From positions 1 through 22,374 of the IMG/VR virus record IMGVR_UViG_3300010412_000089: a stretch of DNA of 22,374 nt. The stretch is one strand, 5' to 3'. The stretch comes from a virus. This document shows, one piece after another, positions 2-22,246 of this stretch; positions within the stretch are counted from its first letter, which is position 1; every line of letters begins with the position of its first letter. The notes below the pieces were generated by a model, which was not told the DNA's origin, searched no databases, and saw only the letters and a program-made list of their open reading frames with translations. The position numbers and the translations under genes are program-made.

Positions 2-3000
2 ACAACGATATCTACTAACATTACTACAGTAACTTCCGGTTCATGGATTATTGATGCATTGGTTCATGGTCAAAGTACAGCTACATTTACACCCAATTCA
101 GGACAAACAGAACGATGGGATACCATTGGAACGGGTGCAGTACATGGAGCAGGTGGAACCAGAGAAGTAACTACTCCGGGATTAGTATCACAACAATGGA
201 CGTTTTCTCCTAATACAGCTTCAAATACAGTTTCTCACTTACTTGCTGCATTTGCTCGAGCTGGCGGAGCCGATCCATCTCCAACACCATCAATAACACC
301 AAGTATTACACCATCTGTTACTCCATCAATAAGCATTAGTCCAAGTGTAACCCCAAGTGTAACACCATCAATAAGCATTAGTCCAAGTATTACACCTTCT
401 ATTACACCTTCGGTAACTCCGGGCGTCAGCATCAGTCCGAGTATTACACCAAGTATTACACCTTCTATTACACCAAGTATTACTCCATCCATCTCACCAT
501 CAATTACACCATCAATTACACCATCAATTACACCATCTATTACACCATCATCAACTCCGTTTTATGGGTGGACGTTAGTTCAATCTGGAAGTAGTACTGA
601 TAATCCAATTCCATCAACTTCTGGCACAACTATAGTTACTACATTTTCATCTGCCGTATCAGTTGGAAATTTATTGGTAGTCGCAACACAATGGGATTAC
701 GGTGGATGGACCGGCCCGACAACGGGTAGTGATAATTTAGGAAATACATGGTATAGAGCTGAAAGTGTAAATAATACTACTAATACCCAACGTGGAGAAT
801 TGTGGTATACTGTTGTGACAACGGGTGGTTCGTGTGTATTCACATTAAATTTACCATCATCTCAAGGATATCGTGCGAGACACTGGTATGAATGGTCTGG
901 AAATTCAACCGATGCTGGTACTATTGTGGATGCACACAATGGAACAAACAACAGTACAGCAACAACTCACCCAACATCATCTATTGACACAACGGTAAAT
1001 AAAGATTTAATTATAGGATTTGCGGTCGGCGCGGCGAGTCACACCCAATATACAGCTGATCCGGGTTTTACAAAAGTTAGTTATACCGAATATGGAATGC
1101 AACCAACTGCTTCGGCAGGAACAGTAGTTGGATTTACGCAAACTTCTGATGTTGCTGGTGTAATAGCAGTTGCATTTAAACCGGCCGGCGGTGAACCATC
1201 ACCTACGCCAACTTCAACACCATCAATAACACCAAGTATTACACCATCTGTTACTCCATCAATAAGCATTAGTCCAAGTGTAACCCCAAGTGTAACACCA
1301 AGCGTAACACCATCAATTAGTATTACGCCGTCAATAACACCAAGCATTACACCCAGTATAACACCATCGATCAGTATTAGTCCAAGTGTAACACCGTCAA
1401 GAACACCATCGATCAGTATTAGTCCAAGTGTGAGTCCGAGTGTAACACCATCGATCAGTATCAGCCCAAGTGTAACACCGTCAAGAACACCATCGATCAG
1501 TATTAGTCCAAGTGTTACTCCTTCTGTTACTCCATCCATCAGCATCAGTCCGAGTGTAACCCCAAGTGTAACACCAAGCGTAACACCATCGATCAGTATT
1601 AGTCCAAGTGTAACACCTTCTATTACACCATCAGTAACACCATCAATTAGTATTAGTCCAAGTGTAACACCGTCTATTACACCATCGATTACACCAAGCA
1701 TCAGCATTAGTCCAAGTGTAACACCGTCTATAAGCATTAGTCCGAGTGTGTCACCAAGTATAACTCCAAGCATCAGTGTCAGTCCCAGTATAACACCAAG
1801 TGTAACACCTTCTATTACCCCCAGTGTAACAGCGCAGCCATTTATAGGAACTTTGTATTTGGGTCACAATACCACGTTCCTTGCCGCTCTAGTAAAAGTT
1901 GGAATAGCCGGTGATTATGCAAATGGATTGTCATGGAGTTATTGGGATTCTGATATTAATGATTGGCAATTGGTAAGTAATTTATCAGAAACCGTTGTCG
2001 GATTATCCCAATTTGAAACAACCGTTGAAGGAATAGTTTATTGGGATATACCGGGTACGTGGGGTACAACTTCTGTAAATGGTGAAAATTTATATTGGAT
2101 AAAAATTGAAAGTAATACTAATACTGGTTCGGATACGCAAGCTTTAATAACACGCATAATAATAACAGATAAACCGGGCGTTACTCCCTCAGTAACTCCA
2201 ACTATAACAATAACACCGTCAATCACACCGTCAATTAGTATCAGTCCGAGTATAACACCGTCAATAACACCATCGATCAGTATTAGTCCAAGTATAACAC
2301 CGTCTATTACACCATCGGTTACACCGTCAATAACACCATCGATCAGCATCAGTCCAAGCATTACACCAAGTATTACGCCTTCGGTGACACCATCGATCAG
2401 CATCAGTCCAAGCATTACACCAAGTATTACACCTTCGGTGACACCGAGCATCAGTATTAGTCCAAGTGTAACACCAAGTATTACACCTTCGGTGACACCA
2501 TCGATCAGCATCAGTCCGAGTGTGACACCAAGTATAACTCCAAGCATCAGTATTAGTCCAAGCATTACACCAAGTATTACACCTTCGGTGACACCATCGA
2601 TCAGCATCAGTCCAAGCAGAACACCAAGTGTTACGCCATCGATCAGCATCAGTCCAAGCATTACACCAAGTATTACACCTTCGGTGACACCATCGATCAG
2701 CATCAGTCCGAGTGTATCACCTTCGGTAACGCCGAGCATCAGTATTAGTCCAAGTGTAACACCAAGCATTAGTATCAGTCCAAGTGTAACACCTTCAATA
2801 ACACCAAGTGTTACACCATCCATCAGCATCAGTCCAAGCAGAACACCGAGTGTTACGCCATCCATCAGCATCAGTCCAAGCAGAACACCAAGTGTTACAC
2901 TTTCGGTAACGCCGAGCATCAGTATTAGTCCAAGTGTAACACCGTCTATTACACCTTCTATTACCCCATCACTAACTTCTGGCTGCGGTGTTAAATATGA

Positions 3001-5272
3001 CGCAACGTTTACAAGTGGCTCGACGGCGGTGGGGTCATATCCAAGTTTTGTTGCTGATTTTACTGTTGGTAATAATCCAAATAGAGTATTGTTTGTACAG
3101 GTAGCAATAGAAAATAGTACTTCGGCGGTTTATTCGTCTGCTTCAGCTATTACTTACGGTGGTCAGGCACTAACATATTTAACACAGTCGTTGGTGGGCG
3201 GAACATCAGAATTTAACACCAATGAAATATGGTATTTATTGAGCCCACCAACAGGTACCAATCAATTATCTGCATCATTTAGTCCTACTATTGATATCGG
3301 ATTTTCATTAAATGCCATATCGTTGTATGATGCGGCACAGGTGGCACCAACAGCAGTATCCGGTGGAATTAAACCAATAGGTTCAACTGGAACAACGTTA
3401 ACTGGAAGTTTAACTACTGTTTACAACAATTCTACAATAGTAGATTTTGTTACACACGGCCAAAGTACAGCTACATTTACACCCGATTCCGGACAAACAG
3501 AGCGATACGATACTACTGCTACGAGTGCAATTCATGCTGCAGGTAGTACTAGAACGGTCACTGCTATAGGAAATTACAATCATCAATGGACGTATAGCCC
3601 AGCATTAACGGTTAATCAAGGTGCTACTATATTGATGATTGAAGTTGGTAATGTATGTGAAGTTGCTGTATCGCCAACCCCAACGCCTACCGTATCAACA
3701 ACACCGAGTGTAACACCATCAATTACTCCGAGCATTAGCATCAGTCCAAGTAGAACACCAAGTGTAACATTATCTGTTACGCCCAGTATTACACCATCCA
3801 TTACCCCATCAATCAGTATCAGTCCCAGTATTACACCATCTGTTACGCCCAGTATTACACCATCCATTACCCCATCAATCAGTATCAGTCCAAGTGTAAC
3901 ACCAAGTATAACTCCGTCAATAACACCAAGCAGAACACCAAGTCTTACTCCATTTTTGACACCAAGTGTAACACCAAGTTCTATTACATTTACAGAAAAT
4001 ATATCTGTGGTGTATATAGATTTCTTACATTACGAACCACCAGCAACTCCTTCAGTAACACCAACTATTACACCGTCGATCAGTATTAGTCCTAGTGTAA
4101 CGCCAAGTATTAGTATTTCACCCAGTGTAACACCAAGTATCAGCACTAGTCCTAGTGTAACGCCTACTCCAAGTGTAACACCAAGTATCAGCATTAGTCC
4201 TAGTGTAACTCCAAGTGTAACACCAAGTGTAACACCAACCATTACTCCAAGCATAACACCAAGTATCAGCATTAGTCCTAGTGTAACTCCGAGCAGAACA
4301 CCTTCTATCAGCATTTCACCTAGTGTTACTCCATCAATTAGTGTAAGTGCTTCGCCTGCGCCGACACCATCGATTAGTATCAGTCCAAGTATTACACCTT
4401 CGATAACACCAAGTGTAACACCAAGCATTAGTATCAGTCCAAGCATCACACCATCGGTAACTCCAAGTGTCAGCATTAGTCCAAGTGTCACACCAAGTGT
4501 TACGCCATCGATCAGTATTAGTCCAAGTGTAACCCCGAGCGTTACACCATCAGTTACACCATCGATCAGTATTAGTCCAAGTGTAACCCCGAGCGTTACA
4601 CCATCAGTTACACCATCGATCAGTATTAGTCCAAGTATAACACCAAGTGTAACACCGTCAATTAGTATCAGTCCGAGTATAACACCTTCAATAACACCGT
4701 CAATTAGTATTAGTCCAAGTATTACACCTTCGGTGACACCAAGTAGAACACCATCGATAAGCATCAGTCCGAGTGTGTCACCTTCGGTAACACCAAGTAG
4801 AACACCAAGCATCAGCATTAGTCCAAGTATTACACCGTCAAGAACACCAAGTATTACGCCGTCAATTAGTATTAGTCCAAGTGTTACACCAAGCAGAACG
4901 CCAAGCATCAGCATCAGTCCAAGCATAACGCCCTCGGTGACTCCAAGCATCAGCATTAGTCCAAGCATAACACCAAGCAGAACGCCTAGCATCAGCATCA
5001 GTCCAAGCATTACACCAAGCAGAACGCCTAGCAGAACGCCTAGCATCAGCATTAGTCCAAGTATTACACCAAGCAGAACGCCTAGCATCAGCATCAGTCC
5101 AAGCATTACACCAAGTAGAACGCCTAGCGTTACATCTGGCGGCGGTGGCGGATTTACATGGAATAATTTTGGTTTAAATCCATCTCCGTCACAATCTAAA
5201 TTGTTTATTTTGACGGTACCAAGTCCATCTCGAAGTATGATGCCGAGAGTTAGTGTTACATCAATTTATTAA
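2..5272 (+). CDS. Giant Ser/Pro/Thr repeat protein with beta-rich domains (5'-partial)
   Basis: The frame is open from base 2, and the codons before the first possible TTG start (59) continue a domain seen again downstream, so the true start lies left of the window. Roughly 1,000 of the visible residues are linkers of the tetrapeptide S-[I/V]-[T/S]-P with interspersed SISISPS units. Between linkers lie non-repetitive domains: a partial one (about 2-275), one at about 560-1193 rich in aromatic and Gly residues, one at about 1832-2176 with YW and YWIKI motifs, and one at about 2981-3670 that is homologous to the first. The protein ends with a Gly-rich patch and a short unique tail (5138-5272). 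Domains of these types occur in phage virion and environmental secreted proteins. The linkers look like extended stalks. A fibrous virion, tail-fibre or adhesion role is inferred, not shown. No enzymatic motif, signal peptide or membrane segment is visible in this part. Confidence 0.8.
275..559 (+). repeat. PSITPS linker repeat block 1
   Basis: This is a 12-base coding periodicity inside the giant repeat protein. It encodes S-[I/V]-[T/S]-P tetrapeptides and SISISPS units. Ser is encoded by a mix of TCA, TCT, AGT and AGC, so the protein pattern is better kept than the DNA pattern. Confidence 0.8.
1195..1831 (+). repeat. PSITPS linker repeat block 2
   Basis: This is a second, longer stretch of the same coding repeat, joining the domain that ends near 1193 to the one that begins near 1832. 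SISISPS units recur at intervals of two to four tetrapeptides. Occasional Arg substitutions (SRTP) break the pattern. Confidence 0.8.
2177..2980 (+). repeat. PSITPS linker repeat block 3
   Basis: This is a third stretch of the 12-base coding repeat, between the domains ending near 2176 and starting near 2981. It contains near-identical higher-order units built from SISISPS followed by two to three S-x-T-P units, consistent with unequal recombination or slippage. Confidence 0.8.
3680..5135 (+). repeat. PSITPS linker repeat block 4, with exact tandem duplications
   Basis: This is the longest repeat stretch, interrupted only by a unique segment of about 25 residues near 3978-4045. It contains an exact 54-base tandem duplication (4507-4560 and 4561-4614). 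A 66-base period also starts at 3775 and 3841, with about the first 50 bases matching. SRTP units become frequent towards the 3' end. Confidence 0.85.
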
Positions 5273-5334: not shown

Positions 5335-7863
5335 ATGAGCGAACGAATTATAGCTGTTTATGCGGGCCGATTTCAACCCTTCCACCGTGGGCATTATTCT
5401 GTATATCAAAATTTAGTGCAAAAATATGGTGCAGATAATGTGTATATTGCGACATCCAATAAAACGGATTCAGAAAAATCGCCGTTTAATTTTGATGAAA
5501 AAAAGCATATTATGACTTCTATGTTTAATATACCAGAAGATCGAGTTGTTCAATCAGCACAACCATATCGTCCCACTGAAATTCTATCGCAATTTGATCC
5601 GGAAACAACTACTTTTGTAACCGCCGTATCAGAGAAAGATGCCGAACGTTTGGGTGGAGGAAAATACTTTTCAAAATTAGATGGCATTGATGATCCGAAA
5701 AAGTTAAAGGGATTTTCAGAACGGGGATATTATACAGTTACACCAGAATTTCAATTAGATATTGGTGGTAAAAATATTAGTGGCACAACAATACGAAAAG
5801 CATTGGGGAGTACTGAGTTATCTGATAAAGCTAGAAAAAAACTATTTACTATGTTATATGGTAAAATGGACGATTCTGTATATGATTTAATAACCGGAAG
5901 ATTGTCTCGTGATAAATCAATTGAGGAACCATCTTCGGATAAGTCTGTTGCTGTTCCGCCCGATGCTCGTGTTAAAAATCCATTAACGAAGAGAGATATT
6001 TTAGTCAAAACGGCATTGAAATATCCTCCATCGCATCCATCTCATATTGCAGCAACAAAATATATCAAATCTCTACGACACGAAGTAGTTTTACACATTA
6101 AACCTGTACAATTTTTATACGAGGATATTGATTCGGCATTAGTAGAGGCAATTTTAGAAGGAAACCGCCGGGAATTATGTTTGCTACGAGAGGCACAGTC
6201 TTCAACTGAACGGGTCCGGCGTTATTATAAACGACACCCAGAGAAAGTTAGAAAGTATTTGAAAAAGACACAGGATGACAGAGTTGCAAGAAATCGTGAT
6301 AGACGTAAAGCTGTAAAAAAATATGGTAAGAGTAAAATGAAAAATCATGATGTTCATCATCCAAATGGTGCAAAAAATGGAAATTGGAGATTGGCTCGTA
6401 AAGATCATGGCCGTGATAAAGTAAATGAAAGTTTACTCATTGAAGGTGGAGCAGCGGGACACATGATGCACCCGTTTGATGATCCTTCTCTAACGTTTGC
6501 AGATTTTAAACGAATGATTCAAATGAGTTTGATAGGGCAATTGGATAGTGAAGCACCCATGACAGAAAAGTTAGACGGTCAAAATATAGCTTTTACAGTT
6601 ATAGACGGCGAAGTTAGATTTGCGCGAAACGCAGGACATATTAAAAACTCTGGAGAATCAAGTTTAACTGCCGACCAATTACGAAAGAAATTTGGTGGAC
6701 GGGGAGATATTGAACATACCTTTGGTGAAGCTGCCGACGATTTGCAGGCGGCAATTTCATCATTATCTCCAGAAGAACAAGAAAAGATATTTAAAAGTGG
6801 AAGTAGATTTGCTTCGGTTGAAGTGATTAATCCATCATCAGAAAATATTATTCCATATAATAAAACATTGTTAATAATTCATAACATTACTGAGTATGAT
6901 CAGGATGGCGAAGAATTAGGACGAAGTTTAGAAGCTGGTAAATATTTGGCCAATCAAATTATAAATGCAGGAGCAGATGTACAAAAACGGTATGGTATAA
7001 AAGGTCCGGCCACTATCACCATGAATGACTATGATACTGAAACATATAAAGAAAAAGCCAGTTCATATCAGAGAACATTAGATCATTTTAGAGATAGATA
7101 TAAATTGTCCGATGATAGTACATTAGGAGATTATTATACTGCATGGTGGGGAGAAGAAATTGATAGATTGTCAAAAAAACATAAAATTGATTTGTCTCCT
7201 ATTAAGGATGGCCTGATTCAGCGATGGGCATTTGGAAATAAAGAATTACAATTACATAAAATGCCTCCAGAAGCCAGAAAATTTGTACGACAGTACGAAA
7301 AGGAACGATTGACAACACAACAAGATAGAGTTAGAAAACCATTTGAACGAGTTTTTCTAAAAGCCGGCGCCGATGCGTTGACAAGAACTACAGAGTTGTT
7401 GGCATCAAACAATCCTCTTGCCGGGCAAGCCATTAAGAAAAAGGTGTCTGAAGTATTACGGCAGTTGAGAAAAACTCACAGTGCGGAGCAAGTAGAATTT
7501 TTAGATCGTCAAATTCGTCGTTTGGGAGCAATCGGATTTGATAGAATTGTTCCAACCGAAGGACTTGTATTTACATATAATGGAAAGCCATATAAATTAA
7601 CAGGAGCATTTGCTCCAATAAATCAACTTGTGGGAACAATGAAGTTTGGTCGTACTCCAGATGTAAGTGAACCGAAAAGTAGTGTGGATTCTTCTCCGGC
7701 AAATAGGCAGTTAATTCAACCGCTTTTACACCATCGTATTCGAAATCCGGCCACCGGACGAGATATTTATATTGGAACGGCATTAGGATATCAATCGACA
7801 GCGCCGGTTTATAAGGCGGCAAAACGATATATACAACAACAAATCTCAAGAAACAGGAAATAA
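5335..7863 (+). CDS. NMNAT-like adenylyltransferase / HNH-like / KxDG ligase-like fusion protein
   Basis: Three regions can be read in order. Residues 1-190 form a cytidylyltransferase/NMNAT-type domain with GRFQPFHRGH (HxGH at 17-20) and the ISGTTIR motif at 148-154. Such domains transfer AMP or another nucleotide, typically in NAD or coenzyme synthesis. Residues 290-362 are basic and end in NHDVHHPNG (337-345), an HNH-like motif. Residues 370-770 resemble an RNA/DNA ligase nucleotidyltransferase core: KLDG at 412-415 (motif I, K412 the candidate adenylylated lysine), SVEVINP near 494-500, EGLVF at 742-746 (motif IV) and a Lys at 754 (motif V). Two copies of an NPxTGxDI module lie at 212-248 and 797-836. 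ATG 5335 is chosen because the ATG at 5321 stops at once in its own frame. The fold assignments are strong for the first domain and moderate for the ligase and HNH. The substrate is unknown; nucleic-acid repair or NAD-linked chemistry is inference. Confidence 0.82.
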   Translation: MSERIIAVYAGRFQPFHRGHYSVYQNLVQKYGADNVYIATSNKTDSEKSPFNFDEKKHIMTSMFNIPEDRVVQSAQPYRPTEILSQFDPETTTFVTAVSEKDAERLGGGKYFSKLDGIDDPKKLKGFSERGYYTVTPEFQLDIGGKNISGTTIRKALGSTELSDKARKKLFTMLYGKMDDSVYDLITGRLSRDKSIEEPSSDKSVAVPPDARVKNPLTKRDILVKTALKYPPSHPSHIAATKYIKSLRHEVVLHIKPVQFLYEDIDSALVEAILEGNRRELCLLREAQSSTERVRRYYKRHPEKVRKYLKKTQDDRVARNRDRRKAVKKYGKSKMKNHDVHHPNGAKNGNWRLARKDHGRDKVNESLLIEGGAAGHMMHPFDDPSLTFADFKRMIQMSLIGQLDSEAPMTEKLDGQNIAFTVIDGEVRFARNAGHIKNSGESSLTADQLRKKFGGRGDIEHTFGEAADDLQAAISSLSPEEQEKIFKSGSRFASVEVINPSSENIIPYNKTLLIIHNITEYDQDGEELGRSLEAGKYLANQIINAGADVQKRYGIKGPATITMNDYDTETYKEKASSYQRTLDHFRDRYKLSDDSTLGDYYTAWWGEEIDRLSKKHKIDLSPIKDGLIQRWAFGNKELQLHKMPPEARKFVRQYEKERLTTQQDRVRKPFERVFLKAGADALTRTTELLASNNPLAGQAIKKKVSEVLRQLRKTHSAEQVEFLDRQIRRLGAIGFDRIVPTEGLVFTYNGKPYKLTGAFAPINQLVGTMKFGRTPDVSEPKSSVDSSPANRQLIQPLLHHRIRNPATGRDIYIGTALGYQSTAPVYKAAKRYIQQQISRNRK
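5968..6078 (+). other. NPxTGxDI module, copy 1
   Basis: Residues 212-248 of the fusion protein carry R-V-K-N-P-L-T-K-R-D-I, then TALKY, a Pro/His-rich turn and a short helix ending in KYIKSL. It aligns without gaps to copies at 7723-7842 and 17666-17785. This copy has K where the other two have G after T. Confidence 0.75.
7723..7842 (+). other. NPxTGxDI module, copy 2
   Basis: Residues 797-836, at the C-terminus of the fusion protein, read LLHHRIRNPATGRDI, then TALGY and a helix ending in RYIQQQ. It closely matches the tail of the HAD phosphatase at 17666-17785. Confidence 0.8.
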
Positions 7864-7867
7864 CTAT

Positions 7868-8464
7868 ATGGGTTATGAAAATAAGGCATTGCATGACGTG
7901 CGCAGAAAAGTCGCAGAAGTTGTTAAAAAAGAGGGAGAAAAAATAGTTGTTGGATACCGTGGAACAGAAGTTAAACGAAAAGAAGGTGATGTGTGGGAAG
8001 ATGAAAACGGTAAAACGTGGACTGTTAAAAACGGTATTATACAATCCATTAGTAAAATGGAAGGTTATAGAACACCATTATTTTGCCCCGTCTGTGAAAA
8101 GTCAATGGGACATTGGTTAGATACAAAATTTTGGCGACTTCGAGGAAAATGTCATGATTGTGTTTTGAAGGAAGAAACACAAATGCGATTGGATGGTACG
8201 TGGGAACATTACGAAAAGATTAATGAATTAAAAAATCAAATCGCATATCTGGAAGAGGAAATTGCTAAAATTGTTTCATATCGTGAAGCATTATCACAAC
8301 CAGAAATCATTCACGCCGACGATGAAAATATTCTCATGGTAGAAAAATGGCATGTTTCATTGGATAAATTACGCAAAGATATGACTGATGATATTGAATA
8401 CATGAGTCAGGTATTAGAAAACACCAAACAACTATTAATAGAGGCACAGGCAGATGGCAATTAA
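7868..8464 (+). CDS. Cys4 zinc-ribbon-like protein of unknown function
   Basis: This 198-residue protein has two CxxC pairs, CPVC at 73-76 and CHDC at 95-98, spaced like a structural zinc ribbon. A mainly helical, charged C-terminal half follows (about 115-195) that is likely to form a coiled coil. The N-terminus is short and basic. It starts four bases after the stop of the NMNAT/ligase gene and overlaps the next gene by 11 bases, so it is probably co-transcribed with both. I do not recognise the family. Zinc binding is inferred from the cysteines only. Confidence 0.75.
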   Translation: MGYENKALHDVRRKVAEVVKKEGEKIVVGYRGTEVKRKEGDVWEDENGKTWTVKNGIIQSISKMEGYRTPLFCPVCEKSMGHWLDTKFWRLRGKCHDCVLKEETQMRLDGTWEHYEKINELKNQIAYLEEEIAKIVSYREALSQPEIIHADDENILMVEKWHVSLDKLRKDMTDDIEYMSQVLENTKQLLIEAQADGN

Positions 8465-9099: not shown

Positions 9100-10698
9100 A
9101 TGACAGAACAAAATAAATTGGTAGAAATAATTAAATCGGAGTACAAAAAATGTGCTCTGGATCCAAAATATTTTTTGAACAAGTATGCGTTTATTCAGCA
9201 TCCGATAAAAGGGCGTATACCCTTTCATCTGTATTTGTATCAAAAAGATGTAATAGATGACATAAGCAATTATACTAACACCATAATTTTAAAGGGTAGA
9301 CAAATTGGTATTAGTACGGTGGTTGCTGGGTTTTCTTTGTGGCTTATGACTTTTCACAAAGATAAAAATATTTTGGTAGTGGCCACAAAAAAGGAAGTGG
9401 CAAAAAATTTAGTTACAAAAGTTAAATACATACACGATAATTTACCGAGTTGGCTTAAAGCAGAGTGTATTACAAAAAATAAATTGTCTTTGGAATTTTC
9501 CAATGGCTCACAGATTAAAGCTGTAGCCGCTACAGACGATGCCGGCCGATCAGAAGCGTTGTCATTGTTGGTCATTGACGAAGCCGCATTCATCGATAAT
9601 GCAGAAATTATTTGGACCGCTGCTTCGGCTACGTTGTCTACCGGTGGTAATGCCATTTTGTTATCTACTCCAAATGGTATGGGAAACTTTTTTCATAGAA
9701 TGTGGCAGGCCGCAGAAGGAAAAGAAAATGACTTTCATCCGATTTTATTAGATTGGAGAGTTCACCCGGATCGTGATCAGGAGTGGCGAGATCGTCAAAC
9801 GGAAATTCTTGGTGAAATGGGAGCAGCGCAAGAACACGATGCATCATTTATATTTTCTGGTAATACTGTTATACATCCCGAAGTAATTGAATTTTATAAA
9901 AAAACTTATATGCAAGAACCGGCGGCTTATCGTGGATTTGATAGTAATATGTGGGTTTGGGAATATCCAAATTATGACACCACATATGTTGTAGCCGCTG
10001 ACGTTGCCAGAGGCGATGGCAACGACTTTTCAACATTTCACGTACTTGATGTGGAAAAATCAATACAAGTTGCAGAATATAAAGGTAAAATTAGCACGAA
10101 AGACTTCGGTAATATGTTAGTGGCCGTTGCAACCGAATACAACGATGCGCTAATCATTCCGGACAACTCTTCAATTGGACACGCCGCCATACAGCAGATT
10201 ATAGATAGGGGATATCCAAATTTATTTTATATGTCAAAAGATTTACGATATATTGATGTTGAGCAACAGTTGGATTTGGACGTTAACAGCGACGAACGGC
10301 GAATGGTGGCTGGATTTACCATTTCACAACGAACTCGTCCACTTATTATTGCCAAATTAGAAAGTTATATGAGAGAAAATTCTGTTATAATACGTTCGTC
10401 TCGTTTTATGAGTGAATTAGAAACTTTTATTTGGAAAAACGGTCGTGCCGAGGCATTGGATATGTATAATGACGATTTAATATTGGCCATGTGTATTGGA
10501 TTGTGGGTTCGGGACACAGCATTACGGTTGCGGTCTGAGGGAATTGAACTGAACAAGGAAATGATTAATCGTATGACACGGGTGGTTCCTGACCAAATTC
10601 TTCAACCAAAAACGATAGTTGACCCCTATAAAATACCAATGCCGAACAATCAGCAGGAAGATTTACGATGGTTGTTGGGAGGAAAGACCGTAAGTTAA
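9100..10698 (+). CDS. terL: Terminase large subunit (T4 gp17-like)
   Basis: This is the ATP-driven motor and nuclease that cuts concatemeric DNA and pumps it into the prohead through the portal. The 532 residues cover both domains. The ATPase carries KGRQIGIST (65-73, Walker A-like), LLVIDEAAF (156-164, Walker B with D160/E161) and LSTPNG (188-193, coupling motif). The RNase H-like nuclease shows VAADVARGDG (D301), PDNSS (D355) and NDDLILAM (D458/D459), the expected acidic triad. The canonical Walker A lysine before S/T is replaced by Ile. Lys65 before the loop may take its role, as in terminases with an N-terminal Walker lysine. It starts one base after the stop of the preceding gene. No small terminase is identifiable in the window. 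Confidence 0.96.
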   Translation: MTEQNKLVEIIKSEYKKCALDPKYFLNKYAFIQHPIKGRIPFHLYLYQKDVIDDISNYTNTIILKGRQIGISTVVAGFSLWLMTFHKDKNILVVATKKEVAKNLVTKVKYIHDNLPSWLKAECITKNKLSLEFSNGSQIKAVAATDDAGRSEALSLLVIDEAAFIDNAEIIWTAASATLSTGGNAILLSTPNGMGNFFHRMWQAAEGKENDFHPILLDWRVHPDRDQEWRDRQTEILGEMGAAQEHDASFIFSGNTVIHPEVIEFYKKTYMQEPAAYRGFDSNMWVWEYPNYDTTYVVAADVARGDGNDFSTFHVLDVEKSIQVAEYKGKISTKDFGNMLVAVATEYNDALIIPDNSSIGHAAIQQIIDRGYPNLFYMSKDLRYIDVEQQLDLDVNSDERRMVAGFTISQRTRPLIIAKLESYMRENSVIIRSSRFMSELETFIWKNGRAEALDMYNDDLILAMCIGLWVRDTALRLRSEGIELNKEMINRMTRVVPDQILQPKTIVDPYKIPMPNNQQEDLRWLLGGKTVS

Positions 10699-10744: not shown

Positions 10745-11323
10745 ATGGGAAAAATAAGTGGAATTTATAGAATAGTTTGTGTTGCTAACGGTGATTATTA
10801 TTACGGATCTTCTGCTGATATACAAACTCGGTGGGTAAATCACAAAAGAAAATTGAATAATTTAACACACGAAAATAAACGAATTCAGCATACGTGGAAC
10901 AAATATGGTGCTCTAATGTTTCGTATGGAAATATGTGAGTTTGTGTCCAAAGACGACTTATTCGAAGTAGAAAATAAATATTTAAAGGAACATATTGGTA
11001 AACCGCATTGTATGAATATATCTGCAGATGCATACAGCCCTTCTAGGGGTAGGAAATTGGGACCGCTATCTGAGGAAACCAAGAAAAAAATTAGTAAGGC
11101 AAGAACTGGGCAGTCTAATGGACCATTTTCGGAAGAAACTAAACAAAAAATGAAAGAAACTTGGAATGCGCAGAATAAAAAAATTAGGCGTTCTTATGGT
11201 CCGTTGTCTGAGGAAACTAAGAAAAAAATGAGTATAGCACATACCGGAAAAACACATTCGGAAGAAAGTAAGCAAAAAATTAGAGAGTCGGTCAAAAGAA
11301 AACTCTCCACTGCCACTAAATAA
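10745..11323 (+). CDS. GIY-YIG homing endonuclease with NUMOD3 repeats
   Basis: Free-standing phage endonuclease of the Seg type. The N-terminal nuclease domain shows SGIYRI (5-10) and YYYGSS (18-23), the GIY-YIG core, with R29 and E76 in the positions of the catalytic Arg and Glu. From about residue 105 on, four NUMOD3-like DNA-binding units repeat the pattern S-E-E-[T/S]-K-x-K. Such enzymes cut phage DNA lacking the gene and spread by recombination; they are not needed for growth. It stands alone between the terminase and the EF-hand gene, with 46 and 83 noncoding bases on its sides, unlike its tightly packed neighbours. This fits a recent insertion. All key residues are present, so it looks intact. 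Confidence 0.93.
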   Translation: MGKISGIYRIVCVANGDYYYGSSADIQTRWVNHKRKLNNLTHENKRIQHTWNKYGALMFRMEICEFVSKDDLFEVENKYLKEHIGKPHCMNISADAYSPSRGRKLGPLSEETKKKISKARTGQSNGPFSEETKQKMKETWNAQNKKIRRSYGPLSEETKKKMSIAHTGKTHSEESKQKIRESVKRKLSTATK

Positions 11324-11406: not shown

Positions 11407-11718
11407 ATGATTAAATTATCGGATTTGATTAAAAAACAACATCAAGTAATATCCGAAACTAACCCCGATGCCAACTCAGATGGCATTATTTCGGCTAAGG
11501 AATTACACGATCATTTTGATGTTAATGGTGATGGCAAAGTTGATTTAGTTGATTATGCCGCTCACATTCTTTTTCACATCGAAAACCCACAATATCTACA
11601 ACAATATCGAGCTGCTGCGCAAGAACGACTGGTTCAGTCCCCACTTGCAGCGCGCATGAACAAGTTTTCACAACGTGGTGCAGCACCCGGACCAAGCACA
11701 TATCCGGTGGAGAATTAA
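11407..11718 (+). CDS. Small two-EF-hand protein
   Basis: The 103-residue protein has two consecutive calcium-binding-type loops: DANSDGIISAKE (21-32) and DVNGDGKVDLVD (38-49). Both keep acidic or Asn ligands at positions 1, 3 and 5, Gly at 6 and an acidic residue at 12. They are joined by a short helix, as in a paired EF-hand. The rest is helical, then a Gly/Pro-rich tail. Calcium binding is expected from the loops but not shown. The gene sits between terminase and portal, so a virion or assembly role is plausible. A second protein of the cassette (16436-17098) has a similar loop. A dockerin-like pair is the alternative reading. Confidence 0.8.
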   Translation: MIKLSDLIKKQHQVISETNPDANSDGIISAKELHDHFDVNGDGKVDLVDYAAHILFHIENPQYLQQYRAAAQERLVQSPLAARMNKFSQRGAAPGPSTYPVEN

Positions 11719-15325: not shown

Positions 15326-15852
15326 CTGAGGAGCAACGACTTCGAGAGGCCATTTCATTTATTATCAAGAAAGTATTACCATCCGTGATAGAAGATTGCG
15401 AGCAATCCAATTCTGCTGCTGAAAAGCCAGAAGAAATTGAAGAAATTTCAACTTCCGATGGAGCAGGAGCATATTTGATGCCAATGGCATTTACTGGTGG
15501 AAAGGCCGGAGGAATTAAAAAACAGAAGAGTACGGCGGAAAAACTTGGATATAAACTTACTCCAGCAGGAGAAAAGGCATTATATCATGCAGATAAATTG
15601 CAAGAAGCAGTGTCTCGTTATCATCAGTTTAGACAGGATCCACATACTCCTCGATATAAAATTGGAAAATCTGTAGTGGAAATTGGCCGTCATCTGGATG
15701 AAATTAATAAAATTGTATCTATGAATCTCAGATTGAAAAGAGAAAATAATGTGTCGACTTCGCAATATTGGAAGCGTACGATGGGACAGTTGGCCAGATT
15801 AGAACAAAAAATGATTCGGATAGCAGAAAAAGTTAGAGAGATGAAAATATGA
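15322..15852 (+). CDS. Head-region protein in the gene 68 position, function unknown
   Basis: The 176-residue protein has an N-terminal helix (RLREAISFIIKKVLPSVI), an acidic Glu-rich stretch, a Gly-rich segment (FTGGKAGGIKK, about 57-67) and a basic helical C-terminal half. ATGA overlaps join it to the gene before and to the prohead protease after, so the three are translationally coupled. T4 has the prohead core gene 68 directly before gene 21, so a minor core or scaffold role is possible from position alone. I do not recognise the sequence. Confidence 0.72.
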   Translation: MTEEQRLREAISFIIKKVLPSVIEDCEQSNSAAEKPEEIEEISTSDGAGAYLMPMAFTGGKAGGIKKQKSTAEKLGYKLTPAGEKALYHADKLQEAVSRYHQFRQDPHTPRYKIGKSVVEIGRHLDEINKIVSMNLRLKRENNVSTSQYWKRTMGQLARLEQKMIRIAEKVREMKI

Positions 15853-16439
15853 GTAGATTACTAATTGAGTATAGTCCAATATCGTATGGTCAACAGTTAA
15901 TTCGAGAGGCATCTGAACCACATACGCCGTTAATTCTTCGAAATGTTGTCTTACAACGGGCTGATGCGAAAAATCAGAATGGGCGTGTATATCCCCGAGA
16001 AATTTTAATGCGAGAAGCTAAAAAATATCACGAAGAATTTGTTAAACAGCGCCGAGCATTAGGAGAGTTAGATCATCCCGAATCATCTGTAGTGAACTTG
16101 CGTAATGTTTGTTCAAACATCGTTCGCATGGAGATTAATGGAGATACGGTTGTAGGAGATATTCATATATTATCAACTCCCGCCGGACACATTGTGAGAG
16201 AGTTGATTAAAAATAATATACGTTTGGGTGTATCTTCACGGGGATTGGGTTCTATTAAACAAGTATCGGAGGGAACTGTAGAAGTTCAAGACGATTTTAA
16301 TTTAATTTGCTTTGATATCGTTTCCAATCCATCTACGTATGGTGCATTTATTAATGAGAGTGTCATAGGGACAGCTAGATCAACTCCAATTACTCGTTTG
16401 AATTCGTTAATTTATGATTTCTTGGGAGAAGTACAATGA
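15849..16439 (+). CDS. gp21: Prohead core protease (T4 gp21-like)
   Basis: This serine protease is expected to act inside the prohead, cleaving scaffold, itself and the capsid protein before DNA packaging. The 196 residues show the family pattern: NQNGRVYPRE (42-51), the histidine motif GELDHPE (72-78, H76), the GDIHILSTPAG segment, and the serine motif LGVSSRGLGS (126-135, S129 or S130), followed by SNPSTYGAFINES. That last INES matches the enzyme's own expected cleavage consensus, as in self-processing T4 gp21. ATGA overlaps couple it to both neighbours. Confidence 0.93.
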   Translation: MSRLLIEYSPISYGQQLIREASEPHTPLILRNVVLQRADAKNQNGRVYPREILMREAKKYHEEFVKQRRALGELDHPESSVVNLRNVCSNIVRMEINGDTVVGDIHILSTPAGHIVRELIKNNIRLGVSSRGLGSIKQVSEGTVEVQDDFNLICFDIVSNPSTYGAFINESVIGTARSTPITRLNSLIYDFLGEVQ

Positions 16440-17098
16440 GCGACAATAAAATTGAACAAGATATGCTCACATTAATTGAACAGATAGAAAATTTAAGTGA
16501 AGCAGATTTATTCCCGGACGGCTCATTATCGATTATAGGTTCATCTAAGAAAAATAAAAAGAAGGTCAAGGAAGCAACTCCGGCAATACATCCACCGTGG
16601 AAAGTGGATAAGGTAGCAAAACCAACTGCTACAATTACACGAGCTAACGGCAAACGAGTATTAGCTACCAGTGTTTTGAAGCGAGGAAAAGCTGATCCGG
16701 ACTATGAAAAGGCCAAACAGGCGGTGGCGTCTGCCAAAACAAGTCGCCCACGGCGGCATTGGGTTAAAAAAGAATCAGCGCCAACTGGCAAAGGTTGGGA
16801 AAAGACTGTTAAGGGAATGAAAAAACACCCCGAAATAGATAATCCATTTGCATTGGCACATTGGATGAAGAAGAAAGGATATAAACCAAAGCAAGAAGCA
16901 GCTGATCCAAACGGTGACGGCTCTGTTTCAGCCGACGAATTACAGGCTAGAATTGATGTAAAACGGGCACAACAAAAAGCAGTAAAACCAGATTCAAAAC
17001 TAGCTCAAGAACTTCCTCAACAGATTTCAAGACTTGAAAAACAACGTCAGAGAAAATCAATTCCAGAAAATAAAAAGAAGACAACATCTTCTAGTTAA
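16436..17098 (+). CDS. Helical head-region protein with an EF-hand-like loop
   Basis: The 220-residue, strongly basic protein begins with an acidic amphipathic stretch ending in LSEADLFPDG. A basic region comes next, then the segment GKGWEKTVKGMKKHPEIDNP followed by ALAHWMKKKGYKP; I recall similar segments in phage hypothetical proteins. Residues 157-168 (DPNGDGSVSADE) form a canonical EF-hand-type loop, here unpaired. The C-terminus is Lys/Gln-rich and low in complexity. GGGAGAAG upstream is a good ribosome binding site, and the start overlaps the protease stop. Function is unknown; a minor virion or core protein is likely from context. Confidence 0.75.
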   Translation: MSDNKIEQDMLTLIEQIENLSEADLFPDGSLSIIGSSKKNKKKVKEATPAIHPPWKVDKVAKPTATITRANGKRVLATSVLKRGKADPDYEKAKQAVASAKTSRPRRHWVKKESAPTGKGWEKTVKGMKKHPEIDNPFALAHWMKKKGYKPKQEAADPNGDGSVSADELQARIDVKRAQQKAVKPDSKLAQELPQQISRLEKQRQRKSIPENKKKTTSSS

Positions 17099-17101
17099 AA
17101 T

Positions 17102-17800
17102 ATGCAGAACAAAAATTTGTTGGTCATAGATTTTGACGACACTCTAGTTCGAACAGGAGCAAAAGTAACAGTCACACACGCCGATGGTACATCAAAGGCA
17201 TTAACACCGGCGGAATATGCAGTATATGATCAACAACCGGGTGATTATTTTGATTTTAAGGAATTTGATGATTTAATAGATCCCCGTCCTATCAAACGAT
17301 ATAATAGAATTTTACATAAAGCAGTTGATAATCCCAAAGTGGATAAAGTTGTAGTTTTAACTGCCAGAAGATCACTCCCACCGGTAGCTAAATTTCTTAG
17401 TCAGATAGGGATTACCAAAGGAGTAAAAATTGTACCGTTAGATAGCGGGGATCCAAATCTTAAACGAGCTTATGTTGAACGACAGATAGAAGATGGATAT
17501 AATAGAGTTTTATTTGTTGATGATAGTCCAAAAAACATTAAGGCTGTTGGAGATTTACGAAGGAAATATCCTTCTGTCAATTTAATCACCCACCAACCGA
17601 CACAGGATTCGGAAATGCGTGACAGAGAAAAGAAATCACCCCCACAACGAATTGCTAAATGGGGACATTTATTGAATAAACGAATACGAAATCCGCAAAC
17701 GGGAAATGACATCTTATTGAAAACTGCATTGGGATATGATCCCAGTCATCCTGTTCGACGAATTGCGATACAATATTTAAAGCGGAGTATGTCTTCATGA
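17102..17800 (+). CDS. HAD-family phosphatase with NPxTGxDI tail
   Basis: Residues 1-165 are a HAD hydrolase: DFDDTL with D10 (nucleophile) and D12, VVLTARRS (motif II, near 92), and LFVDDSPKN with D140/D141 (motif IV). The small size and layout recall the 3'-phosphatase domain of phage polynucleotide kinases, so a nucleic-acid 3'-phosphatase or nucleotidase is a reasonable guess; no kinase domain is present. Residues 189-228 carry LLNKRIRNPQTGNDI, then TALGY and a helix. This tail is shared with the NMNAT/ligase fusion at 5335-7863. The stop overlaps the next gene's start by four bases (ATGA). Confidence 0.87.
   Translation: MQNKNLLVIDFDDTLVRTGAKVTVTHADGTSKALTPAEYAVYDQQPGDYFDFKEFDDLIDPRPIKRYNRILHKAVDNPKVDKVVVLTARRSLPPVAKFLSQIGITKGVKIVPLDSGDPNLKRAYVERQIEDGYNRVLFVDDSPKNIKAVGDLRRKYPSVNLITHQPTQDSEMRDREKKSPPQRIAKWGHLLNKRIRNPQTGNDILLKTALGYDPSHPVRRIAIQYLKRSMSS
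17666..17785 (+). other. NPxTGxDI module, copy 3
   Basis: The C-terminal tail of the HAD phosphatase. It aligns without gaps to residues 797-836 of the NMNAT/ligase fusion: R-I-R-N-P-x-T-G-x-D-I, three residues, TALGY, then a short helix with A and Y in register. Confidence 0.8.
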
Positions 17801-18567
17801 CATTTGAAGAGTTGGTGCAATCGATGCAAATACAGCCAGAGTTAAATTCTAAACTTTGGGATGAATCGCAAGAATTACGACCGGAAATTCGTGCGGCATT
17901 GATGAAGATTGCACTTATGTTTTACAAATCCATTAAATTAAAAAACAAACCACCAATAAAAGATATTGTATTTACTGGTAGTCTGGCTAATTATAATTAT
18001 TCTGAGTTATCAGACATTGATTTACATTTGATATTTGATTTTAGTGATGTAAATGCTGATAAAGAATTGGCAGAGCAATTTTTTATTTTAGCGAAGGCCA
18101 ATTGGAATGAAAAACATGATATTACCGTTAAGGGATATGAAGTCGAAGTGTATGCCGAAGATGAGAACAATCCACACGTATCAACCGGTTTGTATAGTAT
18201 CTTAAATGGGGAATGGATTAAAAAACCAAAAAAAGAATTACCCGTATTTGATGAACGAGATGTACACAGCAAGCTGCAATATTTCGTAGTAATGTATAAA
18301 GAACTTGTGTCACAATATCAGCAAAAAAAGATGACACACTTGTATGAAAAAATTGCATTACTCAGAGATAAAATTAGAAAATTTCGTTTGGCTGGATTAA
18401 AACACGGTGGTATATATTCAACAGAAAATATTACTTTTAAATTTTTACGACGAATTGGTTTATTGGGAAAACTTAAGTTACTACAGAATAAAGTTATGGA
18501 TATTCAACTATCTGTAGAGACTAGCCATGAAAGATATAAATTGGACAAAGGTGGTAGACGTATTTAA
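17797..18567 (+). CDS. Pol-beta-type nucleotidyltransferase
   Basis: The 256-residue protein carries the hallmark GS(x)9-D-x-D: G61-S62, then SDIDLHLIF with D73 and D75. A third carboxylate is probably E117 in GYEVEVYAED. These bind two metal ions and transfer a nucleotide to protein, RNA or a small molecule. The C-terminal half is helical and basic, which could bind nucleic acid. The target is unknown. It is translationally coupled to the HAD phosphatase by an ATGA overlap, suggesting linked roles. Its last 41 bases overlap the following membrane protein gene in another frame. Confidence 0.85.
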   Translation: MTFEELVQSMQIQPELNSKLWDESQELRPEIRAALMKIALMFYKSIKLKNKPPIKDIVFTGSLANYNYSELSDIDLHLIFDFSDVNADKELAEQFFILAKANWNEKHDITVKGYEVEVYAEDENNPHVSTGLYSILNGEWIKKPKKELPVFDERDVHSKLQYFVVMYKELVSQYQQKKMTHLYEKIALLRDKIRKFRLAGLKHGGIYSTENITFKFLRRIGLLGKLKLLQNKVMDIQLSVETSHERYKLDKGGRRI

Positions 18568-19202: not shown

Positions 19203-19221
19203 TAATAGGAGTATGAAATTT

Positions 19222-20674: not shown

Positions 20675-22246
20675 ATGGAACGTGTAGATGTTTCCCAATT
20701 TATCAATGAAGCCGCATCCGCTCATAAGCGGTTGACTGAGGAAACTCGTAAGCTTTCTGATAAATGGTCGACCTCAGGACTTCTTGAGGGGTTGAAGGGT
20801 AATGATAAGCAAGGAATGGCAGTTCTTCTTGAAAATCAGGCCAACCAACTTCTTAATGAAAGTTCTTATACTAACTCTTACGGATCGACAGGTGAAAACT
20901 GGGCGGGTGTCGCACTACCGCTCGTTCGTAAGGTCTTCGGACAGATTGCTTCGAAGAATTTCGTCTCAGTGCAACCCATGAACTTACCAGCTGGTTTGGT
21001 ATTCTACATGGATTTCAAGTATAACAATACTTTGAATGGACAAACTGCTGGTGGATCAGTTTATGGTACTACCAGTGGTTCAGGAACCATTCCTACGGGT
21101 GGTTTCTATGGCGCTGGCCGTTTCGGCTACACCATTAATGATCAGAATCAAACTGGTCTATCAGTTCAGGAATCCGCTTCTGCAACCGCAAGTGCTGCAG
21201 ACGTTGATTTCACTGGTATTGCAACTGCATCATTGGCTGTTTATGAAGTTCCGCTTTCGAGCTTCACAACTCCATCAGCCGATGCTAGCGCAGTTCGCGT
21301 GTTCCTACCAAGTGGCTCTGGTGTCAATTTTGGTACCACCACTCTTCAAGTTCACACCAAGCTAAATGCAGCTGGAACGCATGTTCGTTTCGTTGCTCCG
21401 CAGGGTGGAACAATTACCTCTGTTGCATACGTTGGTCAACCAACCGATTCAACTCGTGGTGATTACGAAGATACAACTGGTGCAAATCTTAACATTCCAG
21501 AATTGAATCTAGAACTTCGTTCTGAACCGATCGTCGCTAAGACTCGTAAGTTGAAGGCCGTTTGGTCACCAGAACTAGCTCAAGACTTGAACGCTTACCA
21601 CAGCGTTGATGCAGAAGCCGAATTGACTGCAATGTTGAGTGATTACATTTCAGTTGAAATCGACCTTGAAATTCTTGACATGTTGAATGTTAATGCACAA
21701 ACAACTGCATACTGGTCTGCAAAGATTGGTGATGTATATAACACCACAACTGGTGCATTTGCAGCATCATCGTTCACCGGTACTGCATGGACAAACATGA
21801 CTTGGTACCAAACTCTAGGTCAGAAGATGCAATGGGTATCTAACCGTATCCATCAGCTAACAATGCGTGGCGGTGCAAACTTTGCAGTTTGCTCACCAAC
21901 CGTTGCAACCATCATTGAAACCATTCCGGGATTCTTCGCAAATACCGATGGTGACAAGATGGAATTCTCAGCAGGTATTACCAAGATTGGTTCATTCCAA
22001 AACCGTTGGACCATCTACAAGAACCCTTACATGACTGAAAACATCATTGTTATGGGCTTCCGTGGTAGTAACTTCCTAGAAACCGGTGCAGTCTATGCTC
22101 CGTATATTCCATTGATCATGACTCCGCTAGTCTATGATCCAGATAACTTCACGCCTCGTCGTGGTGTTATGACTCGTTACGCTAAGAAGGTGGTCAGGCC
22201 CGAATTCTTTGGCAAGATCGTCGTCGACAGCTTGAACTTAGTATAA
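20675..22246 (+). CDS. gp23: Major capsid protein (T4 gp23-like)
   Basis: The main shell protein, 523 residues. The N-terminal part resembles the T4 propeptide (SGLLEG, then LLENQANQLLNES). Cleavage by the prohead protease is expected after E62 (L-N-E|S), aligned with the T4 L-T-E|A site. The core shows SYGSTGENWAGVALPLVRKV, VQPMNLPAGLVF and, at the C-terminus, DPDNFTPRRGVMTRYAKKVV and RPEFFGKIVV, all typical of the family. Codons end in C or G (AAC, AAG, TTC, ACC) more often than in upstream genes, as expected for a highly expressed gene. A GGAG ribosome binding site lies at 20660-20663, and a strong terminator follows the gene. Confidence 0.97.
   Translation: MERVDVSQFINEAASAHKRLTEETRKLSDKWSTSGLLEGLKGNDKQGMAVLLENQANQLLNESSYTNSYGSTGENWAGVALPLVRKVFGQIASKNFVSVQPMNLPAGLVFYMDFKYNNTLNGQTAGGSVYGTTSGSGTIPTGGFYGAGRFGYTINDQNQTGLSVQESASATASAADVDFTGIATASLAVYEVPLSSFTTPSADASAVRVFLPSGSGVNFGTTTLQVHTKLNAAGTHVRFVAPQGGTITSVAYVGQPTDSTRGDYEDTTGANLNIPELNLELRSEPIVAKTRKLKAVWSPELAQDLNAYHSVDAEAELTAMLSDYISVEIDLEILDMLNVNAQTTAYWSAKIGDVYNTTTGAFAASSFTGTAWTNMTWYQTLGQKMQWVSNRIHQLTMRGGANFAVCSPTVATIIETIPGFFANTDGDKMEFSAGITKIGSFQNRWTIYKNPYMTENIIVMGFRGSNFLETGAVYAPYIPLIMTPLVYDPDNFTPRRGVMTRYAKKVVRPEFFGKIVVDSLNLV

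What the first reader, a model, noticed from the sequence alone, without database searches (positions are those of the whole stretch)
5335..7863. One polypeptide joins NMNAT-like, HNH-like and KxDG ligase-like domains
HxGH and ISGTTIR mark an adenylyltransferase of the NMNAT type; KLDG (412-415), EGLVF (742-746) and K754 fit a ligase nucleotidyltransferase core; NHDVHHPNG fits an HNH-like motif. An enzyme that makes or consumes a dinucleotide, fused to a ligase that is charged by ATP or NAD, suggests substrate coupling or a capping/repair activity. Each domain type is known in phages; I do not know this exact combination to be described.
Basis: partly seen in the sequence, partly recalled or inferred. 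Interest (0 to 1): 0.6.

Follow-up and report, generated by a model that had tools for sequence, protein, structure and literature searches.

The report
Phage RNA ligase fused to NMNAT
A T4-like phage encodes one protein that joins an NAD-making type of enzyme to an RNA-ligase-type enzyme; hundreds of related phages keep the same pair, and relatives carry the signals that load proteins into the virus head, so it may be a repair kit injected with the viral DNA.

Summary
The 842-aa ORF (5335-7863) is real and is not an assembly artefact. It joins an archaeal-type NMNAT-like domain (res 3-198) to a nucleotidyltransferase domain (371-773) with the ATP-dependent RNA-ligase fold. That ligase family is absent from Pfam above cut-off. 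The HNH claim is not supported. The NMNAT/ligase pairing looks obligatory: of 182 non-identical ligase domains, 109 are fused to an NMNAT-type domain, 49 lie beside one, and the other 24 are truncated or incomplete. Both domain orders occur at the same genomic position, about 1 kb upstream of terminase. Stand-alone relatives begin with a leader that matches the capsid-targeting sequence of T4 internal proteins IPII/IPIII. The family keeps a T4-prohead-protease-type site ([LIV]xE|GG) directly before the ligase fold; the window has LLIE370|GG. Best reading: a head-packaged, protease-processed RNA-repair and NAD-repair cargo injected with the DNA. The fold and the pairing are shown; packaging is shown only by signals in relatives (the window protein has no N-terminal targeting sequence); enzymatic activity is inferred. 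New variant of a known kind.

The parts
5335..7863 (+). 842-aa fused NMNAT-like / RNA-ligase-like protein
5341..5928 (+). NMNAT-like (HxGH-superfamily nucleotidyltransferase) domain, residues 3-198; HRGH at 5383-5394, ISGTTIR at 5776-5796
5965..6075 (+). first 'NPxTGRDIxxxTALxY' module (NPLTKRDILVKTALKY), residues 211-247
6184..6429 (+). strongly conserved module (residues 284-365; SSTERVRRYYKRHPEK...NHDVHHPNG...DHGRDK); HNH-like by motif only, not confirmed
6436..6447 (+). candidate prohead-protease site L368-I369-E370|G371, just before the ligase fold
6445..7653 (+). RNA-ligase-fold nucleotidyltransferase domain, residues 371-773
6565..6585 (+). motif I EKLDGQN (K412 = predicted adenylylation site)
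6625..6627 (+). invariant R431 (ARN)
6820..6822 (+). motif III-like invariant E496
7036..7533 (+). helical insertion between motif III region and motif IV (residues about 568-733)
7558..7596 (+). motif IV EGLVF (742-746) and motif V-like YKL with invariant K754
7732..7845 (+). second 'NPxTGRDI' module (NPATGRDIYIGTALGY), residues 800-837
17102..17800 (+). HAD-superfamily ORF (PHROG polynucleotide kinase profile, E 4e-6) with the same module at its C-terminus (17666-17797)
17797..18567 (+). Pol-beta-type nucleotidyltransferase ORF, possible RNA-repair partner
9100..10698 (+). terminase large subunit (gp17-like); lies downstream of the ligase gene in relatives
15849..16439 (+). prohead protease (gp21-like), with a possible self-cleavage site FINE|S near its C-terminus
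20675..22246 (+). major capsid protein (gp23-like); N-terminus MERVDVSQFINEAAS resembles the targeting leader

Best explanation
The ORF is a two-enzyme head-cargo protein. It is made late, next to the head genes of a T4-like phage, enters the prohead core, and is cut by the gp21-type prohead protease at least at LLIE370|GG, which frees the ligase domain. It is injected with the DNA and acts before any phage gene is expressed. The ligase domain would adenylylate itself on K412 and reseal RNAs, probably tRNAs, cut by host defence nucleases, together with end-healing partners (HAD phosphatase, kinase, CCA-adding enzyme). The NMNAT domain would remake NAD+ from NMN and ATP when host defences deplete NAD+, or would feed the ligase. 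Shown: the ligase fold (model), the NMNAT relationship, the conserved active-site residues, the near-obligate pairing, the genomic position, and the targeting leader and protease-type site in relatives. Inferred: packaging of this particular protein, cleavage, injection, and both reactions.
For: Fold: AlphaFold model of residues 270-842 with most of the ligase core above pLDDT 90; best PDB matches are RNA ligases: Naegleria Rnl Z 9.6, fungal Trl1 9.0, T4 Rnl1 8.8, REL1 8.3, T4 Rnl2 8.1, with DNA ligases at about 7 or less and a capping enzyme at 5.4. NMNAT; the NMNAT domain of a paralogue gives Z 14.4 to MJ0541 NMNAT. Pairing: 109 fused plus 49 adjacent of 182, the other 24 truncated or incomplete. 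Position: 147 of 148 ligase ORFs with a detectable terminase have it downstream on the same strand within 6 kb. Targeting: stand-alone relatives start MKxLxxFxEFLxE; T4 IPII and IPIII (MKTYQEFIAEA) score 13.18 on that profile, within the range of the leaders, and are the best two of 29 T4 genes tested (null tail 1.65e-4). Protease site: 125 of 140 ligase domains are directly preceded by [LIVM]xE|GG against 68 of 3094 GG in other ORFs, at the order/disorder edge of the model; gp21 cuts after L/I-X-E (PMC9026906). Partners: CCA-adding enzyme and a P-loop kinase fused in relatives; the module shared with HAD, CCA-adding and SAM-lyase-like proteins.
Against: The window protein has no N-terminal capsid-targeting leader, and only 8 of 90 complete fused relatives exceed a 1% threshold, against 49 of 56 stand-alone ones. 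No proteomic evidence was available. Foldseek alone gives no PDB match at E<=0.001 and low TM-scores. Pfam RNA_ligase is far below cut-off (14.2 against 27 bits). Substrates (RNA or DNA, ATP or NAD+, NMN or another mononucleotide) are not determined. The conserved LxE before GG could be structural, and related sequences are not independent samples.
Confidence: 0.5

Rival explanations
1. The two domains are biochemically coupled: the NMNAT makes NAD+ (or a similar dinucleotide) that the ligase uses as adenylyl donor, with the released NMN recycled, or the pair attaches or removes a nucleotide cap on RNA.
For: The pairing is near-absolute, in either order and in fused or adjacent form, which is more than two independent cargos need. 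The marine branch has a second ligase-fold domain fused to an NMNAT.
Against: The closest folds are ATP-dependent RNA ligases, which need no NAD+; no domain Ia of NAD+-dependent ligases was seen by eye.
Confidence: 0.15
2. An ordinary intracellular late protein that repairs RNA and salvages NAD+ and is never packaged; the leader and LxE motif are coincidental or structural.
For: No leader in the window protein or in most fused relatives; phage RNA ligases and NMNATs are known as intracellular enzymes (PMC7824862, PMC9503650).
Against: Leader match to T4 IPII/IPIII, [LIVM]xE before GG in 125 of 140, position upstream of terminase, and leaders ending in [LI]xE|A on a family of proteins carrying the same module, one of which matches Pfam S-AdoMet_lyase.
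Confidence: 0.25
3. The ligase-like domain is catalytically dead or acts as a scaffold or guanylyltransferase rather than as a ligase.
For: Some neighbouring paralogues have lost the motif I lysine (EQMDG); the domain lacks a long C-terminal domain after motif V and carries a helical insertion instead.
Against: All nucleotidyltransferase motif residues are invariant in 51 members of this family; a capping enzyme scores below RNA ligases.
Confidence: 0.1

Closest known systems
T4 RNA ligases Rnl1/Rnl2 and related ATP-dependent RNA ligases (Naegleria Rnl, Trl1, REL1)
   Same: Nucleotidyltransferase fold with KxDG/KxxG motif I, motif III Glu, EGxVF motif IV and a motif V Lys; repair partners
   Different: Sequence not significant against Pfam RNA_ligase; helical insertion before motif IV and little after motif V; paired with an NMNAT domain; signals of head cargo in relatives
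Archaeal-type NMN adenylyltransferase (NadM) and phage NadM/NadR
   Same: GRFQPFHxGH and SGTxxR motifs; best PDB and NCBIfam matches
   Different: Far below the curated equivalog cut-offs; no Nudix or kinase partner in the window protein; fused to an RNA-ligase-fold domain instead
T4 head internal proteins (IPI-III, Alt)
   Same: Leader MKxLxxFxEFLxE like MKTYQEFIAEA in stand-alone relatives; L/I-x-E cleavage motif; injected enzyme precedent (Alt)
   Different: The window protein has no N-terminal leader; cargo is an RNA-repair/NAD enzyme pair
Polyvalent proteins (Iyer et al. 2017, PMC5512222)
   Same: Large multidomain proteins beside virion genes; swappable effector modules (ParB-like and HExxH regions in relatives)
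   Different: No ligase/NMNAT core was mentioned in the passages read; 2H domains there were said never to be linked to RNA ligases; conserved two-enzyme core here
Rnl2 ligases fused to N-terminal HNH domains in jumbo phages (PMC7824862)
   Same: RNA ligase in a multidomain phage protein
   Different: HNH not confirmed here; NMNAT partner not mentioned in the passages read

Membership tests
ATP-dependent RNA ligase (nucleotidyltransferase superfamily) | Motif I lysine in KxDG/KxxG plus motif III Glu, motif IV Glu and motif V Lys | tested here: met
   K412, D414, G415, E496, E742, K754 invariant in 51 sequences; motif assignment by pattern, not by superposed coordinates
ATP-dependent RNA ligase (nucleotidyltransferase superfamily) | Fold of the ligase nucleotidyltransferase domain | tested here: met
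   Z 8.1-9.6 over about 180-210 residues to RNA ligases, which rank first; Foldseek top E 7e-3 only
ATP-dependent RNA ligase (nucleotidyltransferase superfamily) | Pfam RNA_ligase (PF09414) above gathering score | tested here: not met
   14.2 bits against 27; weak in 23 of 51 members, best E 0.0029
ATP-dependent RNA ligase (nucleotidyltransferase superfamily) | RNA-joining and self-adenylylation activity | not testable with these tools
   needs biochemistry
NMN adenylyltransferase (NadM type) | GRFxPxHxGH and SGTxxR motifs, HxGH-superfamily nucleotidyltransferase relationship | tested here: met
   fold shown directly only for the paralogue, Z 14.4 to 1f9a
NMN adenylyltransferase (NadM type) | NCBIfam NMNAT model above curated cut-off | tested here: not met
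   best 33.5 bits against 449 and 30.5 against 127
NMN adenylyltransferase (NadM type) | NMN substrate specificity | not testable with these tools
   needs an assay
HNH endonuclease | Match to an HNH profile | tested here: not met
   no HNH match in Pfam at E<=10 for the module from the window and three relatives
HNH endonuclease | beta-beta-alpha metal fold | tested here: inconclusive
   segment has pLDDT about 40-80, mostly coil and helix
T4-type head internal protein | N-terminal capsid-targeting leader | tested here: not met
   window protein scores -12.2; met in 49 of 56 stand-alone relatives
T4-type head internal protein | Prohead-protease motif L/I-x-E at a domain edge | tested here: met
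   LIE370|GG; 125 of 140 relatives, background 68 of 3094
T4-type head internal protein | Presence in the virion | not testable with these tools
   needs proteomics
Polyvalent protein | Several effector-type domains in one late, virion-linked polypeptide | tested here: met
   two enzyme domains plus modules upstream of terminase; ParB-like and HExxH regions in relatives; time of expression not tested
Polyvalent protein | Signature zincin MPTase or DdrB-like ParB domain | tested here: inconclusive
   no such Pfam match in the window protein; ParB_N in one of 43 and HExxH in several relatives

The most novel reading that the evidence does not exclude
A pre-loaded RNA-repair and NAD-repair kit: a previously unnamed RNA-ligase family, obligately paired with an NMNAT, is packed into the heads of many T4-like phages, cut free by the prohead protease and injected, with the 'NPxTGRDI' module marking the repair and anti-defence enzymes of the kit; possibly the NMNAT product is the adenylyl donor of the ligase.
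Probability: 0.4. Interest if true: 0.85.

Novelty: new variant of a known kind. Interest (0 to 1): 0.66.

Why it matters
Phage RNA repair (T4 Pnkp/Rnl1) and NAD+ restoration are known as responses made after infection starts. If the enzymes are injected ready-made, the phage can undo tRNA cleavage and NAD+ loss before its first gene is read. The family is large (the scan stopped at 595 confirmed relatives), the ligase half had no Pfam or PHROG match of its own above cut-off, and there is a cultured carrier (Microcystis phage Mel-JY01), so the idea is directly testable.

Tried and rejected
HNH: no profile match, no confident fold. Assembly artefact: rejected, because six other contigs have the same layout NMNAT-module-HNHlike-ligase-module (L224, L121, L114, L116, L122, L111). 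NMNAT half alone as a viral-contig query: no relative confirmed; the alignment query worked. Alignment A3 of full protein plus fragments: misaligned, replaced by A4. A gp21 site before the HNH-like module: the residues there (NNEA, QKEA, LREA) do not keep L/I at P3, so no claim. Profile comparison of the ligase family with the paralogous 'gene B' N-terminus: not significant by sequence, although Foldseek against viral models links gene B to RNA ligases. Flavobacterium phage immuto, the nearest cultured phage by terminase (49.7%), has another multi-module protein in that slot and no ligase match. DNA ligase or capping enzyme: ranked below RNA ligases.

Full report
What is there. The window is a 22,374-base fragment of a T4-like phage: terminase 9100-10698, portal 12473-14398, prohead protease 15849-16439, scaffold 19213-20652, major capsid protein 20675-22246 (the terminase by similarity, the others by reading and by synteny). 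The ORF 5335-7863 exists as described and all quoted motifs sit at the stated residues.

NMNAT-like half. Residues 8-155 match Pfam CTP_transf_like (28.8 bits, cut-off 21). A 36-sequence profile finds 13 PDB sequences at E<=0.01, all NMN or nicotinate-nucleotide adenylyltransferases, best MJ0541 at 6e-8. NCBIfam also ranks NMNAT models first, but far below their cut-offs, so the reaction is likely and the exact substrate is open.

Ligase half. AlphaFold2 on 51 sequences gives a confident core. VIA-align ranks RNA ligases first (Z 9.6 Naegleria Rnl, 9.0 Trl1, 8.8 T4 Rnl1, 8.3 REL1, 8.1 T4 Rnl2), DNA ligases mostly 5.5-7.8, a capping enzyme 5.4. Foldseek agrees in kind but weakly (best E 7e-3). 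K412, D414, G415, R431, E496, E742, G743, F746 and K754 are invariant. A helical stretch of some 165 residues separates motif III from motif IV and little follows motif V. Pfam RNA_ligase does not reach its cut-off, so this is an undescribed family in the libraries searched.

Pairing. In the fetched set the NMNAT precedes the ligase in 71 ORFs and follows it in 29; one has NMNAT-ligase-NMNAT. With more sensitive NMNAT profiles, 109 of 182 ligase domains are fused to such a domain and 49 lie within 1.5 kb of one; 17 are cut by an end, and the 7 'none' are two at contig ends, four whose next gene is a truncated gene B, and one fragment. Even the most distant relatives (26% identity, on contigs binned as bacteria) are, by motif, ligase-NMNAT fusions. 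The tree puts the window among permuted (ligase-NMNAT) relatives in a clade of 24 with full SH-aLRT support, and the permuted genes occupy the same slot upstream of terminase. So the order was reshuffled within one gene lineage; the NMNAT-ligase-NMNAT form is a possible intermediate.

Tandem version. Marine relatives have a stand-alone ligase (about 430 aa) followed by 'gene B', a second ligase-fold domain fused to an NMNAT. The NMNAT part of its model scores Z 14.4 to MJ0541, and viral RNA ligases match its model in BFVD. Its motif I runs from EKIDGSS to EQMDG, so some copies look inactive.

Head cargo signals. The stand-alone ligases start with MKxLxxFxEFLxE. A profile of 29 such leaders scores T4 IPII and IPIII (MKTYQEFIAEA) at 13.18, within the range of the leaders themselves (7.4-16.9), and ranks IPIII, IPII and IPI first among 29 T4 genes. 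T4 gp21 cuts after L/I-X-E, and the leader of IPIII is the known capsid-targeting sequence (PMC9026906). In 125 of 140 ligase domains [LIVM]xE stands directly before the GG that opens the fold, against 68 of 3094 GG in other ORFs. In the model this is where disorder ends. The window has LLIE370|GG. Against this, the window protein and most fused relatives lack the leader. Of 148 ligase ORFs with a recognisable terminase in the locus, 147 have it downstream on the same strand within 6 kb.

A shared module. 'NPxTGRDIxxxTALxYdkxHPxykaA' occurs twice here and once on the HAD ORF 17102-17800. A scan with its alignment finds it on ligase/NMNAT proteins (17), on proteins matching the HAD query (19; this class was called by similarity to the HAD domain) and on 20 others, including CCA-adding enzymes, a Toprim protein and a protein of a small family (seven members seen) that matches Pfam S-AdoMet_lyase (5.5e-11). 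All seven members of that family start with a short leader that ends in [LI]xE|A, again the gp21 pattern. I read the module as a cargo or complex-forming tag; this is inference.

Repair partners. Fused relatives carry a CCA-adding enzyme (L262), or a P-loop kinase of the AAA_33/zeta type (L168, L172), and one of the 43 scanned fused proteins has a PHROG polynucleotide-kinase match. Reviews describe these kinds of enzymes as phage RNA-repair sets, and NMNATs as counter-measures to NAD+ depletion (PMC7824862, PMC9503650). They also describe Rnl2 ligases fused to HNH domains, but in the passages I read no NMNAT-ligase fusion; three paper searches for it found none.

Verdict. A real fusion of two enzyme folds, a near-obligate pair in many T4-like phages, most likely a head cargo for early RNA and NAD repair. 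The fold, conservation, pairing and position are shown; packaging, cleavage and activity are inferred.

Noticed in passing
window 59-5272: A 1737-aa ORF made largely of [17 protein letters not shown]-type repeats with a few non-repeat domains; GC skew is reversed over it. Looks like a surface or fibre protein.
   Followed up: no
window 7868-8464: A 198-aa zinc-ribbon-like protein found in 146 of 236 ligase loci; in the window it lies between the ligase gene and terminase; candidate small terminase or cargo partner.
   Followed up: partly
window 10745-11323: By eye a GIY-YIG-type ORF between terminase and portal, possibly a homing endonuclease.
   Followed up: no
window 11407-11718 and 16436-17098: Small proteins with EF-hand-like calcium-binding motifs in the head gene cluster.
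   Followed up: no
window 17797-18567: Pol-beta nucleotidyltransferase overlapping the tagged HAD gene; not matched to RlaP in Pfam but a possible RNA-repair partner.
   Followed up: partly
L310:2413-3123 (also L313, L320, L333, L337, L338, L340): A small protein family with a C-terminal 'NPxTGRDI' module and an N-terminal leader ending in [LI]xE|A; L310 matches Pfam S-AdoMet_lyase (5.5e-11), a possible injected anti-restriction enzyme.
   Followed up: partly
L276:1531-3123, L319:798-2399: CCA-adding tRNA nucleotidyltransferases with the same module at the C-terminus.
   Followed up: partly
L270:8695-9909 (Synechococcus phage ACG-2014f): The annotated cytidyltransferase begins MRSFLTFLTEA, again like a T4 targeting leader; cyanophage S-PM2 has a 591-aa model that matches the ligase fold.
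   Followed up: partly
L266:7965-10415 and L264:7576-9954: Distant ligase-NMNAT fusions on contigs binned as WOR-3 and Acidiferrobacteraceae; prophage, contamination or cellular relatives was not settled.
   Followed up: no
L050, L051, L053, L055 gene B: Second ligase-fold domain with motif I lysine replaced by Gln (EQMDG/EQLDG/EQIDG) yet fused to an intact-looking NMNAT.
   Followed up: partly
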